The notes under the pieces were generated by a model. The model searched no databases. It saw only the letters and a list, made by a program, of their open reading frames with translations, and had not been told where the DNA came from. From assembly GCF_014066305.1 (NCBI RefSeq), contig NW_023501037.1, positions 1,364,501 to 1,428,500 of the forward strand: a DNA stretch of 64,000 nucleotides, in the 5' to 3' direction. How positions within the stretch are numbered: position 1 is the stretch's first letter; each line of letters starts with the position of its first letter. The position numbers and the translations under genes were made by a program. Positions 22,695 to 64,000 of this stretch are shown piece by piece. Source of the DNA: Letharia columbiana. Lineage: Eukaryota; Ascomycota; Lecanoromycetes; Lecanorales; Parmeliaceae.

Positions 22695-24901
22695 ATGTCT
22701 GTCGATTATCTTCTGCATGAAAGCTCTGTTGGCTATGCTATATTTCGTACAATGCTACAACCGGACACTGTCGGCGCTCGATTGAAAGAGGTTCAGGACT
22801 CAGTCCAGGTACTCCCTTGTTGCTTTGCTCTTGTAAGAAACATACTGACCTCTCAGTTTCTTGAGAAGTTCGGCAAGATGGTCAAGCTGGTCTCTTTCGC
22901 GCCCTTCCAGTAAGCGGCCGAGCGACGACCTGATTTGAAAATCCAGAAGTTAATTACATTATTCAGAGGTGCAGCTCAGGCTCTGCAAAATGCGAACGAA
23001 GTCAGCGAGGGCATAGCTTCTGAATTCCTACTTTCACTGCTTGAAGTCAATCTACCGAAGTCGGGGAAGAAGAGCAAGATTACGCTCGGGGTAGCGGACA
23101 AGAACCTCGCTGGTGCCATAAAGGGTGCATTTCCTGGACTCGAATGCGAAACAGGCGAGACTTCGGAGATTGTACAGGAAATGCTTCGCGGCATTCGTCA
23201 GCACGCACACAAGCTCTTGAAGCAACTGCAGGAAGGAGATGTCGAGCGCGCAAATTTGGGACTGGGCGTGAGGCTACCTATATGTGATCCAAGACAGTTG
23301 AAGACATGGACTGATGGAGTGTGATGGTGTTACAGCACGCCTATTCGAGGGCGAGGGTTAAGTTCAGTGTACAGAAAAACGACAATCATATCATACGTCA
23401 GTAAACGCACCTTCGCCGTCACTGCGTCGCTAATCTTATTCGCAGAGGCTATTGCTACGTTAGACAATCTGGACAAGGCAGTAAATTTGTTCTCGTGAGT
23501 GCACATTTCAGAGAAAACCCTTTGTAATCGAATCCTTGGTTCGAGCCGCGCTTCGTGTCTCGCGAGCAGTAGGCGGGTCTCAACCCTCACAACTGTTCTA
23601 TAACCTAGGTGTTTCGCCTTAAAGAAGCCATGCTGACTCCGAAAATTGCAGGATGAGAGTCAGAGAGTGGTATAGTTGGGTAAGTATTTCATGAGTGGTT
23701 CTCCCATCTGCAATACCGCACTTCGAGTCGCACCAGCTTTTTTGGGAACATTGTAGCATTCTGGCTGCCATTTTTACTTACTAGACTCGTCTCACCTGAC
23801 ATTGATCAACGGAAGAGCTGATTCGGCAAAATTTTCTAGCATTTCCCAGAGCTTATTAGGATCGTAAGCGATAACCATACTTACGCAAAGCTGGCTCTCT
23901 TCATCGGACCCAAAGAGAGGTTATCGGACGCAGATTTGAATGAGCTAGCCGCCCAAGTGAACGACGATTCTGAGATAGCCCAAAGCATTATTGACGTGGC
24001 TAAAGTCAGCATGGGTCAGGCAGTAAGTTTCCCACGAGTTTCTGTAAGCTCAAATATGCTGATTCACTTGTCTAGATTTCGGATGCTGACATGGACAATG
24101 TCACCACCTTTGCATCAAAAGTGGTCAGTCTAGCGAACTACCGGAAGACACTTCACAGCTACCTGGTCTCAAAGATGGGCATAGTAGCACCTAACCTGGG
24201 AGTACTGATTGGTGAGATGGTTGGAGCACGATTGATATCACACGCCGGTAGCCTTACAAATTTATCCAAATACCCAGCATCCACGGTTCAGATTCTTGGT
24301 GCAGAAAAAGCCTTATTTCGAGCATTAAAGACCAAAAGCAATACACCAAAATATGGCTTGATTTACCACGCGTCTGCCATCGGCAGAGCCTCGCAGAAGA
24401 ACAAGGGTAGGATATCTCGGTTTCTGGCGAACAAGTGTTCCATCGCATCTAGAATCGACAACTTTAGTGAAGCGCCGACCACAAGGTTTGGTGAGGCGCT
24501 GAAGAGCCAAGTTGAGGAGAGATTGAAATTCTACGACTCAGGAGCTGCGCCTACGAAGAACGAACTGGCCATGGTGCGTATCGCCTTGCTCAATCGTAAG
24601 AAAGCTGCTTTGAGGTCGTGCTAATCATAAGCTTCAGCGTAATGCAATGGACAGCGTGCTTGCGGATATCGACCTGGCGGATCCAACTGCAGATGTGGAC
24701 AGTGACGAGGAAATGGCTGATGTGGCACCGAGGGCAGTGCAGAAGCAGGAGAAACAGAAGAAAGACAAGAAGGAGAAGAGGAAAGAGAAAAGAGGAGATA
24801 AGGGGGAAGAGAGCGTAGAAGGCGAGAAGAAAAAGAAGCGGAAGCACGGTGAAGTCAACGGAGACAAGGAACGGAAGAAGGAAAAGAAAGCAAAGCGTTA
24901 A
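22695..24901 (+). CDS. nop56: Nucleolar protein Nop56 (box C/D snoRNP core)
   Basis: Nine exons (22695-22808, 22857-22909, 22967-23267, 23336-23396, 23446-23494, 23652-23679, 23840-24022, 24076-24573, 24638-24901) give 516 residues. The N-terminal domain starts [21 protein letters not shown] coiled-coil region with [18 protein letters not shown] follows, then the Nop domain with [40 protein letters not shown] and [20 protein letters not shown]. The tail (from about residue 430) is a Lys/Glu-rich KKX-type repeat, as in yeast Nop56. The protein pairs with Nop58 and fibrillarin to guide rRNA 2'-O-methylation. Two of its introns (23495-23651 and 23680-23839) are much longer than the rest, and at least the first has the 3' signature of the introner-like family. 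Confidence 0.94.
23495..23651 (+). mobile_element. Probable introner-like element in NOP56 (157 bp intron)
   Basis: Starts GTGAGTGCACATTTC and ends with ATGCTGACTCCGAAA then ATTGCAG. The 15 nt block around the branch site is identical to that of the GH17 intron at 62756-62904. The middle is diverged. Insertion is in phase 2. Confidence 0.7.
23680..23839 (+). mobile_element. Possible diverged introner-like element in NOP56 (160 bp intron)
   Basis: Its length matches the family, and its 3' end reads GAGCTGATTCGGCAAAA before TTTTCTAG, a degenerate form of the family 3' block. The internal block is not clearly recognisable. Phase 0. Confidence 0.45.
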
Positions 24902-25094: not shown

Positions 25095-26339
25095 TCACGC
25101 AGCCTCCCCAAAGTCGTAATGTCCAGTTTCACTTGCATGCTCGGTCGCGCCTTTCTCACCAACGCTCACTTTTCCGCAGATATTACACCTGACAGTAAAC
25201 GCTGCCGTGTCGGTGTAATAATGCCTTTCCTGCAACACCCTGCACAATTCTAGTGCGCCCTCCAGGACAACCAAATCTTGAGCGTCAAAGATTTTGGTAT
25301 CAAGTTCGGGTGGCGCGTATGCAGTTTTGTGTGGCGCATCTGAGGGTGACAATGCGATAGCGTCATAATGAATGCCGGAATAGACTAATATACACCGTTC
25401 CGGCCTTCCTTCATTGAAGCGGTCGGTCCGTAAGGTCTGCACATCTACGCAGATTTTGGGGTCAGCGTTGCGTATTCGAGGCAGATATTGGAGTTGCGAG
25501 ATAAGTTTCTGGAGCGCAAAGGTTTCTTTTGCTCCCGAAAGATGTCGTATTACTCAATCCAAATACCAAATAGGAAGGATCAGCTCGGAAATGTACGCAC
25601 CGATGGACGAAATTTCGACATCAAAGTGCTTGCTCAGGATGTCTAGCTCAATGGCCCCACCCCATGCATCCTCAGTCTGGATCCACCTGCAATAGTCATC
25701 TGGCTGTTGATCCAGCACAACGGCGCTATACGTCTCTGGATTCACTTGAATACTCTGAGCGATTATAGAGCGCAATTCAGTCATGTTATCCATGGCGCCG
25801 AAGAAAGCGGTGTTGAAGGCACGAAAGAGGCAGGAATTATCATCGGGCATGATCCGAAGGACTAAAGTGGAAGCGTGCGAAGGGAGAGGCAGCTCTGGGG
25901 CGTCAAGGGAGGCGGAGGTGGGTTTGCGGGTGAGAGACAAGGGCTTGCTGGTTTTTTGAGTTGACGACGGAGGAGCAGTGCCTACATCTGCGAAGGAGAA
26001 TGAGGACGGTGTGTCTGCGGAGGACGGGTTCAAAGCCTTGTCTGCGAATACTTGACTGGGGCTTGGATCCAAGGGTTTTGGTAGTCCATTGACAGAGGGA
26101 GCTTGTGTAGTCTCGCTGACAATCAGCTGTTCCCCATCCAGGTTTATTCCAATATCTGACAGCTTCGCCGTCGTTGCGAATTCGCCGAGCGACAACGGCG
26201 TTGGTGGATAGCCATGTTTCAAATCAAACTTGGAGATTGATGTCCTTTCTGTAATTTGAGTCCTTAGATCTTCAACGGTCGCAGTTTCGGACAGTGATAT
26301 CGCAGCTTGGCCCGCCGGTCCACGTATCCTGACCCTCAT
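25095..26339 (-). CDS. otu1: Ubiquitin thioesterase OTU1 (Yod1 family)
   Basis: Two exons on the minus strand (25601-26339, 25095-25444) give 362 residues. An N-terminal UBX-like ubiquitin fold (MRVRIRGPAGQAAISLSETA and following, about 1-80) is followed by a Ser/Pro-rich linker. The OTU cysteine protease domain has LRIMPDDNSCLFRAFNTAFF (Asp167, Cys170) and CILVYSGIHYDAIAL (His272). A C-terminal C2H2 zinc finger has Cys333, Cys336, His349 and His355. Otu1 binds Cdc48/p97 through the UBX-like fold and trims ubiquitin chains in ER-associated degradation. The single intron is 156 bp and belongs to the introner-like family, inserted in phase 1 between the Cys box and the His box. Confidence 0.94.
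25445..25600 (-). mobile_element. Introner-like element in OTU1 (156 bp intron)
   Basis: Read on the minus strand it starts GTGCGTACATTTCCGAG, contains CTTCCTATTT and TTTCGGGAGCAA, and ends ACGCTGACCCCAAAATC then TGCGTAG. The two internal blocks also occur, in the same order, in the GH17 intron at 62756-62904. Confidence 0.85.
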
Positions 26340-33348: not shown

Positions 33349-33457
33349 CGACACCTGCAGGGTTCGAACCTGCGCTCACGAATGAAACAGATGTCGAAAA
33401 TCATATCTGAGGAGATAAAATTCAAGTCTGTCGCCTTAACCACTCGGCCAAAGTGTC
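33349..33457 (-). tRNA. tRNA-Ser (anticodon TGA) with intron
   Basis: On the minus strand the acceptor stem GACACTT pairs with AGGTGTC. The D arm is GGCCGAGTGGTTAAGGCG. The anticodon stem-loop ACAGA-CTTGAAA-TCTGT carries TGA, the variable arm is long (class II), and the T arm is GCAGG-TTCGAAC-CCTGC. A 28 nt intron (33393-33420) follows position 37, the canonical site. The discriminator base is G. The A and B box promoters are internal. T-rich sequence follows the 3' end. Confidence 0.95.
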
Positions 33458-36420: not shown

Positions 36421-37343
36421 ATGCCGAAAAGTTTGGCCAAGGTACAGAAGAAAGTCGCCAAGAAGAAGGGGAACTCTACCAGTTTGCACGAAAATAGCAG
36501 AGATGCTCAAAAACTAAGGAGGGCAGGCGCCAGATCTGAGAAGCTGTACGCTATACTTTCTGAAGCAATCCTTCCCCATTCATGCTGTCTTATGGGTCGT
36601 CAGACATGTCTCAAATAGTTCTCTGCTTCTAAGATGTGTCACGCGACTCAGAATTCCAACGCTGACTCCAAAATCCTCCAGGGATAAGCTCGCAGCAGCG
36701 AGAGCGAAGGCAAACCAACCTCATTGTCCAGGAACCCTTTCCAGATGAATATGCGATGCGAGATGCTGATTCCGCCAAGTGAAAAGAGTGGCCTACTTCC
36801 AGGGAGCAGCAAGAGCAGCTACTGCACCCCTAGAGGCGGAGAAACTCCATGGTCTCGTTAAGGGGTTTTTCTACATATCTCTAGCTTGGGGTTTCTCGCT
36901 GATGAATACCAGATTTCTTGGTCGTCACGACGAAGAGCTTGCAGAAATTAAGAGCCAGCGAAGACCCGGCCGACCTTCCAGTACTCGAGAAGACCTACTG
37001 TGCGTATCTTAGGAGTCCGTGTTTCCTCTTTTGAACCAAATGCTGAGTCTTGAGACATGTCTTGCGAGTGTTCACTCTCTCGACGTGTTCCAAGGCTCAC
37101 TATACCCCCCTCAAGCAAGCGGTACTGACCCTGAGATCATAATCCAGACAGCAGTTCATGATGACGGAGGACCAAGAATATAATGGAGGATTTTGGATTC
37201 CAGACATGCAAGATGAGGGGAATCTTAGGATACTGCGCGAATGGAACGGACAGTATACTGCACTAAATACGTTCAAGTATGTTAGGCTGTCGAGAAACGG
37301 CACAATGCGGAAATCAAGCTTCCCTCCGAAGGGCCTTTCCTGA
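36421..37343 (+). CDS. tma16: Translation-machinery-associated protein 16
   Basis: Four exons (36421-36545, 36682-36725, 36780-36999, 37148-37343) give 194 residues. It starts MPKSLAKVQKKVAKKKGNST, then LHENSRD and KLRRAGARSEKLDKLAAARA, typical of Tma16. The central part has HLKRVAYFQGAARAATAPLE and EKLHGLVKGFF. The C-terminal region has RRPGRPSSTREDLL, then YNGGFWIPDMQDEGNLRILR, and ends FPPKGLS. Yeast Tma16 joins late pre-60S particles. Introns 1 (136 bp) and 3 (148 bp) are introner-like elements, each sharing a 20-22 nt identical block with an intron of the GH17 gene 26 kb away. Intron 2 is ordinary in length (54 bp) and ends in AAG. Confidence 0.92.
36546..36681 (+). mobile_element. Introner-like element in TMA16 intron 1 (136 bp)
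   Basis: Starts GTACGCTATACTTTC, contains CTTCCCCATTCATGCTGTCT, and ends ACGCTGACTCCAAAATC before CTCCAG. The 20 nt internal block is identical in the GH17 intron at 63330-63475. Phase 2 insertion. Confidence 0.9.
37000..37147 (+). mobile_element. Introner-like element in TMA16 intron 3 (148 bp)
   Basis: Starts GTGCGTATCTTAGGAGTCC, contains GAGTCTTGAGACATGTCTTG, and ends GCGGTACTGACCCTGAGATC before ATAATCCAG. The internal block is identical in the GH17 intron at 62562-62707. Phase 2 insertion. Confidence 0.9.
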
Positions 37344-44190: not shown

Positions 44191-45360
44191 AATTCTTCCG
44201 TCATACAACAAGATATCTCTCGGCGCCGTCATACCGCCGAGTTTACGGCTAACGATCACGCATCATTGAACGGGCGAGCGAGCGGATGTATCTTTGTAGA
44301 CAAACGACAAAGGCTTCCCAACACGTACATACACTGGCCCACTTCTTGGATACGACCGGGCTTCTCTTTATATAATTTTTAATCCGTTGCACTAACTGGG
44401 CCGCGCCCATAACGCTGCAACCCAGCCTCGCATAGAACAATCCGTTCGTCAGCTAGACATCCGCCTCCATATTCAGAGAACATTCGCTTCTACATACTTC
44501 CTGTTCGCTTCAGTAAATAAGGTTCGGGTCATTTCACATAGAGGCCACCGCATTCGCTTGGCAATTGTGCATACGGGATTACATTGGAGCAGTCGTGATA
44601 GAGCTGCTCCGGTCTGGGCATTTCGAGACTCGTGGCGAATATACAGGCGATTTCCGATGCTTTCCAAGCATGATGTCATGAAAGGGTGTAAAGAAAGAGA
44701 AGAGGCTTCGAACGTGAAGCTCTGGCATGCAACAGAGATGTCTGATTTGATGTGTACATAGCCTAATAGGTAGTCATAATCAAGGCATCGAACTCCTGAC
44801 TATTCACCGCTGCGATAAGTCAGACTTTCATAATAAGCAGCAATGTGGCGGTCTTGAGCCCCAGTAGTATATGATTGAACAAGCTCAAGTAGAATGTTTC
44901 TGGTCTGCAAACAAGGGTCAAGTTATCTGACGTGCAAACCCCTGTGCTTTTTGCATGAGCCAAGCAGACCAAGTCCTGAGTCTGCCAGTTTCAGCGTAGT
45001 AAGCGAACCAACTTTTGTCGCTCAATCAAGGAAATTCACCTTCTTTCAATATAATGTTTATATTTTAGTTTAAGTCCAGATTATTCATGGAGGGGAACGC
45101 GGTAACGAATTCACTCCTTGCCTTTTACCAGAAGTGACCGTGCCGATGTCCCAATTCTCCGATAATCAATCTTTGGAAAACACACTGCTTTATGCAGAAA
45201 AATTTGTTTTGGTTTTTTAGCTTTATTTTTATTTTTGTTTCTTTGTTGCAATTTACACGGCTCCATTTCAAAGTCGATATGTAGACTTGGACAATAGGTA
45301 CTCAGTGGTTGACTTTGGAAAAAAGCTCTCGCTTAACATGAAAGAAACGCCACTCCGCTT
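44191..45360. other. Intergenic A/T-rich interval
   Basis: About 1.2 kb between the convergent AUR1 and RSA3 genes. A/T-rich runs are at 45050-45070 and 45200-45260. No gene is supported on either strand. Confidence 0.5.
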
Positions 45361-61907: not shown

Positions 61908-64000
61908 TTAGCCCGGGCTGTCTCCCAAGATCCCCCAATACTTCTCCGCTCTGGTCAGAAGTCAGTACGCGAAGCGGCTCATGACATTGCCAAGAACACT
62001 GACCCAAAAGTATCCGCCGAATCGGACTTCCATAGATCATTGTACGAATTGTACATGACCAGATTTGAGCCGCCACCAAAAGCCGCTTTCAAGCTGGCAA
62101 TGGCCGCAGCTTGATTTTCCGGACTCGGTATAGCTTTGTTGTTTGGGTCTCCTTGATGAGGCCACCCTGACTCTGTAACGATGGTCGTCTTCCCTCCTGC
62201 AGCTTCTGAAATTTGCTTGACCCAATTTTGTACAAATTGTCCCGCGTCCTCGGGCAAGGTATTGCCGTCGAAGAATGCGTGACAATTGATGGCACAGAAG
62301 TCAGAAGCGGTGCAAAGTTCAATGTTGTTTTTCATGGCCACTAGACGATTTCAAGTCAGTATTTCGTCCTCGATATGAAATTCGGACTAGAAAGACTTGA
62401 TTCTAGACTTTGATAAGAACGTTCTCCTGCGATATCTCGGACGAATCGAAGTGCGGTCCCAAATGAGACGGAGAGCCTCGAAAAGCATGCTTACTCATAG
62501 TATCAACTGTAGCAATTGGCCCGTTATAGCCAGCAGCCTTGAGGGCAGCCTTAGCAGTGCCCTGGAATGTGATTTTGGAGTCAGTATTGCTTGTTTGATC
62601 GGTGATATCGAGCTTTGAAACATCTTTTGAGAGTAAAACCTCCCAAGACATGTCTCAAGACTCAGGATTTGGTCCAAAAAGAGGACATGGACTCCGAGAA
62701 CACGTACAAGGGCGGCAACGACTTGCGATGCAGATGCCTGACCCGTGTTCACCAGCTGTGCAGATTTCGGAGTCAGCATTGCTTATACGAGGTAGGGAAT
62801 GAAAGACAGATCTTGGGAGTAGAAGGTTCTCTTGCTCCCGAAACATGTCTTGCCACTCAACTTCAATACAAAAATAGGAAGAATCGGCTCCGAAATACAC
62901 GTACCTCGTTGCCAACACTAACGCTGTTCACGAGCGACCAGTCCCCGTTGACGGCCTGTCGGTCATGCCGGAGTCAGCATTTCTCCACAAAACACATATT
63001 GAATTACGAGACAGGTCTTGTAAGCAGTATCGAAGACGAAGCACATGTCTTCAACTCGAAGTATGTCCTGCGACTAAGAAAATTATACATATTAGTCCAA
63101 AACAATACGGAAATAACCTATACCGAGGATATAATTTGAACTTCGCTTTGTAAGGAATTGATATCGAAGATGCCGAGAAGAAGTTTGACGCTACTGTGCG
63201 TAGCAGCGATTACATTGCTAATTTGATTGCAGTCTGTTCCATACAACCGTACTACCTCATAGCCGCTGATTTTTTGAAAGTCAGCCGCCACTTGGGAAGC
63301 GCTTTTGCAGGATTGATCGGCGTTGTATGCTTGATGATTCCGGAGTCAGCATCACTCTTTCGGGAGGAATCTGAGTCGCGAGAGATGTCTTAGGAGCGAA
63401 GAACTCTTTAGACATGCCTGACAACTCATGAGACAGCATGAATGGGGAAGAATTGCCTCGGAAATTATAACGTACGCGTGTAAGCAACGGCGGAGCTGAA
63501 CCCTGGACCACTTGAACCAGATTCTTCGGGGCTTGGGTTTTGGCTTGGATTAGGTGAAGGCGCTGGGGCCATTGCTTCCGTGGGTTGAGACACCGGCGAT
63601 GGGGCTGGAGCTGGAGTCGACGGCTTCGGCTTGGGAGCTACCAAGGGCGAAGAGGGCGATTTCGAAGGAGGTGCTGGAGGGGTCGAAGGCGATTCTGGGG
63701 GAGGAGCTGGAGTGTTAGAAGGCGACTCGGCGGGAGGCGCTGGAGGGTTAGAAGGTGTTGGCGCCGGGGTGTGCGGCACAAGTCCCTTGTACACTGTGGT
63801 TGTAGACACGGGTTGATTTGCGTCGTTAACGTACACGATTACGTCTTCAGAATCATAGGTGACATATTTTATGTCAGTGACAACGTCGGTGACAACATCT
63901 GAACAGACATCCTGTCGTTTTGCGTGGTGATGTTTTAGATGGTCTGATCATGGCAAGTCAGCACCTTGTCCCGGATGCGGAATTGGCCAATTCCATACCA
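61908..64000 (-). CDS. GH17 endo-beta-1,3-glucanase, partial (5' end outside the window)
   Basis: Eight exons are visible on the minus strand: beyond 64000 to 63965, then 63476-63911, 63124-63329, 62905-62955, 62708-62755, 62495-62561, 62004-62340 and 61908-61950. After a CSDVVTDVVTDIKYVTYDSE region comes a long Pro/Ser linker (about 100 residues). The GH17 barrel starts AYTPYNADQSCKSASQVAAD, with VVRLYGTDCNQISN, then SVSVGNE (acid/base Glu), LVNTGQASASQVVAAL, CAINCHAFFDGN and TIVTESGWP (nucleophile Glu), and ends GAEKYWGILGDSPG. It resembles the BtgE/Scw group of secreted cell-wall glucanases. Five of its introns are 146-168 bp introner-like elements; the other two are ordinary (53 bp each). 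The elements split the barrel into exons of 48-206 bp. Confidence 0.93.
62341..62494 (-). mobile_element. Introner-like element in GH17 (154 bp)
   Basis: On the minus strand it starts GTAAGCATGCTTTTCGAGG and ends AAATACTGACTTGAAATC before GTCTAG. It is the most diverged of the five in this gene. Phase 1. Confidence 0.75.
62562..62707 (-). mobile_element. Introner-like element in GH17 (146 bp)
   Basis: Starts GTACGTGTTCTCGGAGTCC, contains GAGTCTTGAGACATGTCTTG (identical in TMA16 intron 3), and ends GCAATACTGACTCCAAAATC before ACATTCCAG. Phase 0. Confidence 0.9.
62756..62904 (-). mobile_element. Introner-like element in GH17 directly after the catalytic Glu codon (149 bp)
   Basis: Starts GTACGTGTATTTCGGAG, contains TTTCGGGAGCAA (shared with OTU1), and ends GCAATGCTGACTCCGAAATC before TGCACAG. 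Phase 0, between GNE and LVN. Confidence 0.9.
62956..63123 (-). mobile_element. Introner-like element in GH17 (168 bp)
   Basis: Starts GTATAGGTTATTTCC and ends GAAATGCTGACTCCGGCATG before ACCGACAG. Contains AAGACATGTGCTTCG near the middle. Longest member. Phase 0. Confidence 0.82.
63330..63475 (-). mobile_element. Introner-like element in GH17 (146 bp)
   Basis: Starts GTACGTTATAATTTCCGAGG, contains CTTCCCCATTCATGCTGTCT (identical in TMA16 intron 1), and ends GTGATGCTGACTCCGGAATC before ATCAAG. Phase 1. Confidence 0.9.

What the first reader, a model, noticed from the sequence alone, without database searches (positions are those of the whole stretch)
62341..63475. One GH17 gene carries five related introner-like elements
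Five of seven visible introns are 146-168 bp, while ordinary introns here are 40-125 bp. They share a GTACGT-type start, an internal ACATGTCTT-like block in most, and a 3' block around GCTGACTCCRAAATC with the branch site. Spliced out, they leave a perfect GH17 frame with both catalytic Glu residues, so they are functional introns and not decay. Such density in about 1.1 kb suggests repeated insertion, the proposed way introner-like elements create new introns.
Basis: partly seen in the sequence, partly recalled or inferred. Interest (0 to 1): 0.9.

Follow-up and report, generated by a model that had tools for sequence, protein, structure and literature searches.

The report
Spreading introns in a wolf lichen
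A gene in the wolf-lichen fungus Letharia columbiana carries five introns that belong to related families of hairpin-forming introns which have copied themselves, in ready-to-splice form, into several hundred places in the genome, a good example of how new introns arise.

Summary
Confirmed and extended. The genome matches Letharia columbiana Lecol_v1.0 by contig count, largest contig and N50. The GH17 gene has seven introns: two ordinary (55 and 53 bp) and five of 146-168 bp. Models built only from copies outside the window recover all five (E 1e-45 to 5e-5) and neither ordinary one. I1, I3 and I4 belong to three related families (A 147 bp, B 155, C 147); I2 and I5 are older, weaker relatives. 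A fourth family, D, is about 218 bp. The shared 16-base 3' motif occurs 400 times, reversed control 26. Bounded copies end at their splice sites, lie mostly in the sense of open frames (68 of 76) and show no convincing target-site duplication. The B consensus folds end to end into one hairpin, leaving both terminal Gs and the branch A unpaired. Insertions are about 16-fold denser within 1.5 kb of other copies, and two pairs abut exactly. Best reading: fungal introner-like elements spreading by seamless, probably RNA-mediated insertion. No report from lichens was found in the library searched. Splicing and species-level gain are untested.

The parts
63330..63475 (-). I1: family A introner, 146 bp, GTACGT...ATCATCAAG
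   Evidence: A model E 1.2e-45; up to 90% identical copies elsewhere
62956..63123 (-). I2: decayed introner relative, 168 bp, matches A and B models over its 3' two thirds
   Evidence: A model E 2e-6; one other copy, 77% over 121 bp
62756..62904 (-). I3: family B introner, 149 bp
   Evidence: B model E 3e-35
62562..62707 (-). I4: family C introner, 146 bp
   Evidence: C model E 2.4e-37
62341..62494 (-). I5: decayed introner relative, 154 bp (weakest case)
   Evidence: B model E 4.7e-5, A model 8.4e-5; not listed at E < 0.001 with the rebuilt models
61908..64000 (-). host gene: GH17-type glucanase with proline-rich N-terminal part; exons between the introns; start codon beyond the window near 64065
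   Evidence: Pfam PF00332 scores below its cut-off and the 385-residue product gave no Pfam match; homologue names and the precomputed PF00332 of relatives support GH17
63944..63998 (-). ordinary intron of the same gene (55 bp), not matched by the introner models
61951..62003 (-). ordinary intron of the same gene (53 bp), not matched by the introner models
23501..23649 (+). diverged B-type introner; its strand is not settled by the frame test
   Evidence: B model E 1.9e-11; one of the 8 undecided copies
25445..25600 (-). B introner inside an OTU1-like gene; spliced frame at least 140 + 116 residues
   Evidence: B model E 4.7e-30; frame; the gene name is my reading of the protein
36546..36681 (+). 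A introner, 136 bp
   Evidence: A model E 3.5e-31
37001..37147 (+). C introner
   Evidence: C model E 4.7e-33

Best explanation
The five long introns are members of related families of fungal introner-like elements that multiplied in the Letharia lineage. Shown: many copies, each bounded by its own GT donor and AG acceptor, in genes of different kinds, mostly in the sense of open frames, leaving an intact frame when removed, without convincing target-site duplication; the consensus (ancestral) sequences fold into long hairpins, in B and D with the donor end paired to the acceptor end. Inferred: the mobile form is the excised intron RNA; its end-to-end stem holds the two splice sites together, and it is put back at new places by reverse splicing (into transcribed DNA, or into RNA followed by reverse transcription). 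Each arrival is a working intron at once. The hairpin matters for spreading and not for splicing, so copies lose it as they age and come to look like ordinary introns. The GH17 gene was hit repeatedly, by families A, B and C and probably twice more by older relatives.
For: Genome-wide copies; 117 non-overlapping model hits in 77 fetched pieces, 0 in the reversed control (some D copies count as two halves and four copies appear twice). Ends: each family keeps its own acceptor (A ATCATCAAG, B ATCTGCGTAG, C ATCATAATCCAG) while the flanks differ. Sense: in 68 of 76 testable copies the junction-spanning frame is longer in sense; with one rule for both strands, 69 and 1 tie. Domains: in 9 of 10 chosen spliced products a Pfam domain covers the junction, two of them by only 3 and 7 residues (junctions). 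Seamless: no gap at the five GH17 junctions in 8 homologues. No TSD: identity of k bases on either side is near shuffles for k = 2-8 and 10-12, with no perfect match at k of 4 or more. Hairpins: consensus z -6.0 (A), -6.9 (B), -4.6 (C); self-complementarity z 10.9 (B), 6.8 (C), 5.6 (A), 4.7 (D); 27 of 51 B pairs hold in A, B and C and 9 show changes on both sides. Ageing: pairs kept fall with divergence, r = 0.56 (A, 36 copies) and 0.68 (B, 25).
Against: The inverted repeats would also fit a DNA transposon. At k = 9 the flanks are more alike than in shuffles (0.305 against 0.257, z 3.06, highest of 11 lengths; no perfect or 8-of-9 match); in an earlier set of 56 copies 2 had at least 7 of 9 against 0.06 expected. 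In family A, k = 3, 6 and 9 are all raised (0.315, 0.302, 0.339; k = 8 is 0.209), so I take it as codon periodicity, but cannot fully dismiss it. 8 of 76 copies were not longer in sense (named). Of the GH17 introns, I3 and I4 fold better than shuffles (z -3.3, -3.6), I1 weakly (-1.6), I2 and I5 not (-0.8, +0.3). RNAalifold on the copies gave few consensus pairs for A and B. Within copies, double changes that keep a pair are few (7 in A, 16 in B, against 191 and 196 broken). No RNA data, and no empty orthologous site seen.
Confidence: 0.75

Rival explanations
1. Non-autonomous DNA transposons (MITE-like) with terminal inverted repeats that carry splice sites, as proposed for algal introners.
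For: B and D have inverted repeats reaching the splice sites (14 and 13 of the 17 end bases, counted by eye on the consensus ends), A and C near-terminal ones. The weak k = 9 signal.
Against: No convincing target-site duplication in 91 copies, where an 8-bp duplication in family A at about 92% identity to consensus should be plain; coding sequence restored exactly; sense bias. No autonomous element was seen, but none was searched for.
Confidence: 0.15
2. Insertion as intron RNA or its cDNA during repair of double-strand breaks by end joining, as suggested for symmetrical introns of Hypoxylaceae.
For: Seamless insertion and hairpin symmetry fit equally well; the proposal is in PMC8469720 (passages read).
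Against: Does not by itself explain the strand bias or the crowding near other copies and exact abutment at AG|GT.
Confidence: 0.2
3. The likeness reflects only shared splice signals (donor, branch site CTGAC, acceptor) or duplication inside one gene.
For: The strongest shared block contains the branch site.
Against: For I1, identity runs along the whole 146 bp at up to 90% with copies at other places; the models do not hit the gene's two ordinary introns or the reversed window; I1, I3 and I4 each fit a different family best.
Confidence: 0.02

Closest known systems
Fungal introner-like elements (ILEs) of Dothideomycetes (van der Burgt et al. 2012, recalled and as described; Collemare et al. 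2015, PMC4457414, abstract, introduction and part of the methods read)
   Same: Many related canonical introns in unrelated genes, several families per species, decay towards ordinary introns, seamless and transcript-strand insertion, predicted stable folds or inverted repeats.
   Different: Another class of fungi (a lichen former). No sequence comparison with the published ILE families was possible here. ILEs in two of those species reach 98 and 99% identity; the closest pair among my fetched copies is 97%. The AG/GY site preference attributed to van der Burgt et al. is not seen: G is 31% at -1 and 32% at +1.
Internally symmetrical stwintrons and type-2 cropped sister introns of Hypoxylaceae and Xylariaceae (PMC8469720, passages read; PMC12403724, abstract, introduction and start of methods read)
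   Same: Terminal inverted repeats, no flanking duplication, functional on the coding strand only, symmetry lost in older copies, donor G, branch A and acceptor G often left unpaired.
   Different: There many are nested [D1,2] twin introns, with tens of similar copies in a genome; here they read as single canonical introns with several hundred copies. They report no phase bias; here phase 1 is over-represented, 32 of 56.
Introners of algae and other eukaryotes as DNA transposons (Gozashti et al. 2022, PMC9860276, one section and passages read)
   Same: Repeat families that are introns on arrival.
   Different: Many of those carry TSDs or TIRs. That paper says ascomycete families have neither; the Letharia families have inverted repeats but no convincing TSDs. 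Inverted repeats in fungal introners had been described by others before.

Membership tests
Fungal introner-like elements | Many sequence-related spliceosomal introns in unrelated genes of one genome | tested here: met
   spliced products of different Pfam families
Fungal introner-like elements | Canonical GT-AG introns with branch site; frame restored on removal | tested here: met
   by sequence only, actual splicing not tested for want of RNA data
Fungal introner-like elements | Seamless insertion, no target-site duplication | tested here: met
   one weak signal at k = 9 reported
Fungal introner-like elements | Only in the transcribed sense of genes | tested here: inconclusive
   68 of 76 longer in sense, 8 undecided; no genome-wide tally of intergenic or antisense copies
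Fungal introner-like elements | Stable secondary structure / internal symmetry | tested here: met
   family consensuses; of the five GH17 copies clearly only I3 and I4
Fungal introner-like elements | Recent gain shown by absence in related species | not testable with these tools
   no sister genome held; one GH17 paralogue at 32% identity matches without a break across the five sites; one site (L031) is shared with an unnamed close relative
DNA-transposon introners | Target-site duplication | tested here: not met
   weak k = 9 signal noted
DNA-transposon introners | Terminal inverted repeats | tested here: met
   (to the ends in B and D, near the ends in A and C)
DNA-transposon introners | Autonomous partner element or nucleosome-linker bias | not tested
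   not searched for
[D1,2] stwintrons | Internal intron splitting the donor between G1 and U2 | not tested
   copies were read as single introns; no systematic search made

The most novel reading that the evidence does not exclude
Letharia introners insert preferentially where splicing is already going on: successive families pile into the same genes and sometimes land exactly at the edge of an existing introner (AG|GT with nothing between), as if a spliceosome still holding a hairpin-closed intron reverses its reaction at or near a live splice junction. Introner spread would then feed on itself, gene by gene.
Probability: 0.25. Interest if true: 0.8.

Novelty: new member of a known kind. Interest (0 to 1): 0.55.

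Why it matters
Where new introns come from is an old question, and clear cases of mass intron gain are few. This adds a lichen-forming fungus with at least four related introner families in one genome, with an end-to-end hairpin in B and D and no convincing duplications, which separates hairpin symmetry from DNA transposition. The 16-fold crowding near existing copies is a testable clue to how insertion is targeted. A second Letharia species is sequenced (L. lupina, listed), so gains could be dated directly.

Tried and rejected
Selection through nonsense-mediated decay as the cause of the phase-1 excess: family A is mostly stop-free in phases 0 and 2, but copies that would read through if retained are not clearly depleted (11 observed, 14.0 expected, sd 2.7, 56 copies). 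Rejected.

A clean target motif: one weak preference survives correction (A: C at +2, 22 of 37, p 2.3e-4 among 120 tests); B has C|AA at 7 of 32 sites against 2.4% background, a pattern picked after seeing the data. Not enough for a rule.

Conservation of the fold after insertion: paired positions are not better conserved than unpaired in A (0.894 against 0.919), somewhat in B (0.849 against 0.777) (C not examined).

Copies outside the genus: exact 22-mer in viral contigs, 0; exact 16-mer in bacterial and archaeal genomes, 97 stretches in 257 billion bases, about the chance level (my estimate is roughly 120). The stop-free translation of A found 2 proteins: one is identical to a Letharia columbiana locus, the other is the orthologue of L031 in a close relative, with the introner at the same site. 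This search sees only short proteins, so absence elsewhere is not shown.

C22:72670 looked like another abutting pair by pattern, but the models find no introner there. L057 and L070 look like further tandem cases, but I could not fix their borders.

Ribosomal RNA genes as a target: the search did not complete.

Full report
What was checked. The window lies in contig 2 of a 52,243,142-base genome in 161 contigs. A published table gives Letharia columbiana (Lecol_v1.0) 161 contigs, a largest contig of 2,188,364 and an N50 of 666,803 (PMC9146135, passages read); C1 and C32 here have exactly these two lengths. The GH17 protein is 94% identical to one from Cornicularia and 90% to one from Imshaugia, both lichen fungi (recalled). 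So the organism is the wolf lichen's fungus.

The gene. On the minus strand, seven introns: 55 bp (63998-63944), five of 146, 168, 149, 146 and 154 bp, and 53 bp (62003-61951). Splicing gives one frame to the stop codon, gap-free at the five long-intron junctions against 8 homologues; two Glu, by recall the GH17 active-site pair, are invariant. Pfam's GH17 model scores the catalytic part at 20.8 bits, below its cut-off of 28.2, and the 385-residue product gave no Pfam match at all; the name rests on relatives.

A family or chance? I built three profile models from copies outside the window (A 34, B 11, C 4) and scanned the window and its reversed control. All five introns match, I1 best with A, I3 with B, I4 with C, I2 with A (2e-6), I5 with B (4.7e-5); the reversed control and the two ordinary introns show nothing at E < 0.05. 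Rebuilt models keep I2 (3.2e-5) but no longer list I5 at E < 0.001. Four more members lie in the window at 23501, 25600-25445, 36546 and 37001. In 77 fetched pieces (314,616 bases, most chosen because they hold a copy) there are 117 non-overlapping hits and none in the reversed sequence; some D copies count as two halves there and four copies appear twice. Genome-wide, the 16-base 3' motif has 400 matches at up to 2 mismatches (reversed control 26), the B end 154 (control 1), the C end 23 (control 0); these sets overlap. Two elements in 140 kb away from bait copies would scale to some 750 in the genome, and the window alone holds nine, so I think of several hundred to a thousand; this is a thin basis.

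Families. Consensus lengths are A 147 (36 copies, median 91.6% identity to consensus), B 155 (25 copies, 85.5%), C 147 (21 copies, 85%), and D about 218 (5 copies, one without its 5' end). The closest fetched pair is 97.3% identical (A). A looks youngest, but most A copies were fetched as best matches to I1, which favours high identity. A, B and C match one another weakly, so they probably share an ancestor. The GH17 introns I1, I3 and I4 are thus separate arrivals from different families and not duplications inside the gene.

Insertion. The repeat unit ends at the donor GT and acceptor AG, with a family-specific acceptor, and the flanks differ. For 91 copies, k bases on the two sides are about as alike as in shuffles for k = 2-8 and 10-12; perfect matches are 7 at k = 2 (5.1 expected), 2 at k = 3 (1.3 expected) and none beyond; at k = 9 identity is 0.305 against 0.257 (z 3.06, highest of 11 lengths, none with 8 or 9 of 9). 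In the earlier set of 56, two copies had at least 7 of 9 against 0.06 expected. In family A, k = 3, 6 and 9 are all raised, which points to codon periodicity; I report it as a weak unexplained signal. In 68 of 76 testable copies the junction-spanning frame is longer in sense than antisense (69 with one rule for both strands; the 8 others are named). In 9 of 10 spliced products chosen for Pfam a domain covers the junction: aconitase, phosphomannose isomerase, PNGase A (by 3 residues), cyclin (by 7), MFS transporter, permease, hydrolase, monooxygenase and MRJP-type proteins; the IMS polymerase fragment is the miss (junctions). These ten were picked among copies with long open frames. Phase 1 is over-represented, 32 of 56 against 11 and 13 (p 7e-4).

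Structure. Consensus RNAs fold far better than shuffles: z -6.0 (A), -6.9 (B), -4.6 (C); single copies average -2.2, -2.7 and -2.5; of the GH17 introns I3 and I4 reach -3.3 and -3.6, I1 -1.6, I2 -0.8 and I5 +0.3. With more copies the B consensus becomes one hairpin of 51 pairs and -62 kcal/mol running from base 2 to base 154 of 155, leaving G1, G155 and the A of the CTGAC branch site unpaired; D pairs the same two ends around a different interior. Of B's 51 pairs, 27 hold in A, B and C, and 9 show a change on both sides between at least two families. In single copies the pairs erode with divergence (r 0.56 and 0.68). RNAalifold on the copies gives few pairs for A and B. This is what a structure needed for spreading but not for splicing would look like.

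Where they land. Around 20 bait copies of family A, the 250-1500 bp on either side (50 kb) hold 12 further elements and the remaining 140 kb hold 2; per kb of open frame this is about 16-fold (21-fold with the strictest frame cut-off; p 9e-6 to 8e-7). Of the 12, 11 are of another family than the bait and 9 are on the same strand. Distance stands in for gene membership here; gene models were not available. Two exactly abutting pairs are clear: D then B in L041, where only removal of both leaves a 167 + 140 codon frame, and B then B in L189.

Relation to the literature. Fungal introner-like elements and the symmetrical introns of Hypoxylaceae have the same anatomy: seamless, coding strand only, inverted repeats or symmetry that fades with age. 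A wide survey states that ascomycete introners have neither TIRs nor TSDs; the Letharia families agree on TSDs and differ on inverted repeats. In the open-licence library, 'introner' with 'lichen' gave 2 papers, which by title and the start of the abstract are on other subjects and which I did not open, and with 'Lecanoromycetes' none. Supplementary tables were not available, so an unlisted earlier detection is possible.

Verdict. The finding is right in observation and in kind. The mechanism (RNA-mediated, by reverse splicing) is the best fit and is inferred, not shown.

Noticed in passing
window 45087-45197 (+): A U5 spliceosomal RNA gene lies in the same window (Rfam RF00020, 52.6 bits).
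   Followed up: no
window 33349-33457 (-): A tRNA gene whose match spans 109 bases, longer than a plain tRNA, probably with an intron.
   Followed up: no
L041 504-880; L189 249-547: Introners abutting exactly with no exon between (D then B; B then B); in L041 only removal of both restores a frame. L057 and L070 look similar but their borders are unclear.
   Followed up: partly
L034 and L037 (C145 and C9); L066 and L067 (C77 and C109): The same introner with identical near flanks on a short and a long contig: likely duplicated or alternative-haplotype contigs, worth checking for presence/absence differences.
   Followed up: no
L045 (1.9 kb): A PNGase A-type gene carries four introners of families A, B and C, a second gene like GH17.
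   Followed up: partly
P0121, orthologous to L031: A metagenomic protein of 83 residues reads straight through an A introner at the same site as in L. columbiana, 93-95% identical: the insertion is shared with a close relative.
   Followed up: yes
families A and B, insertion sites: Phase-1 excess (32 of 56) and slight site preferences (A: C at +2; B: C|AA) without an explanation.
   Followed up: partly
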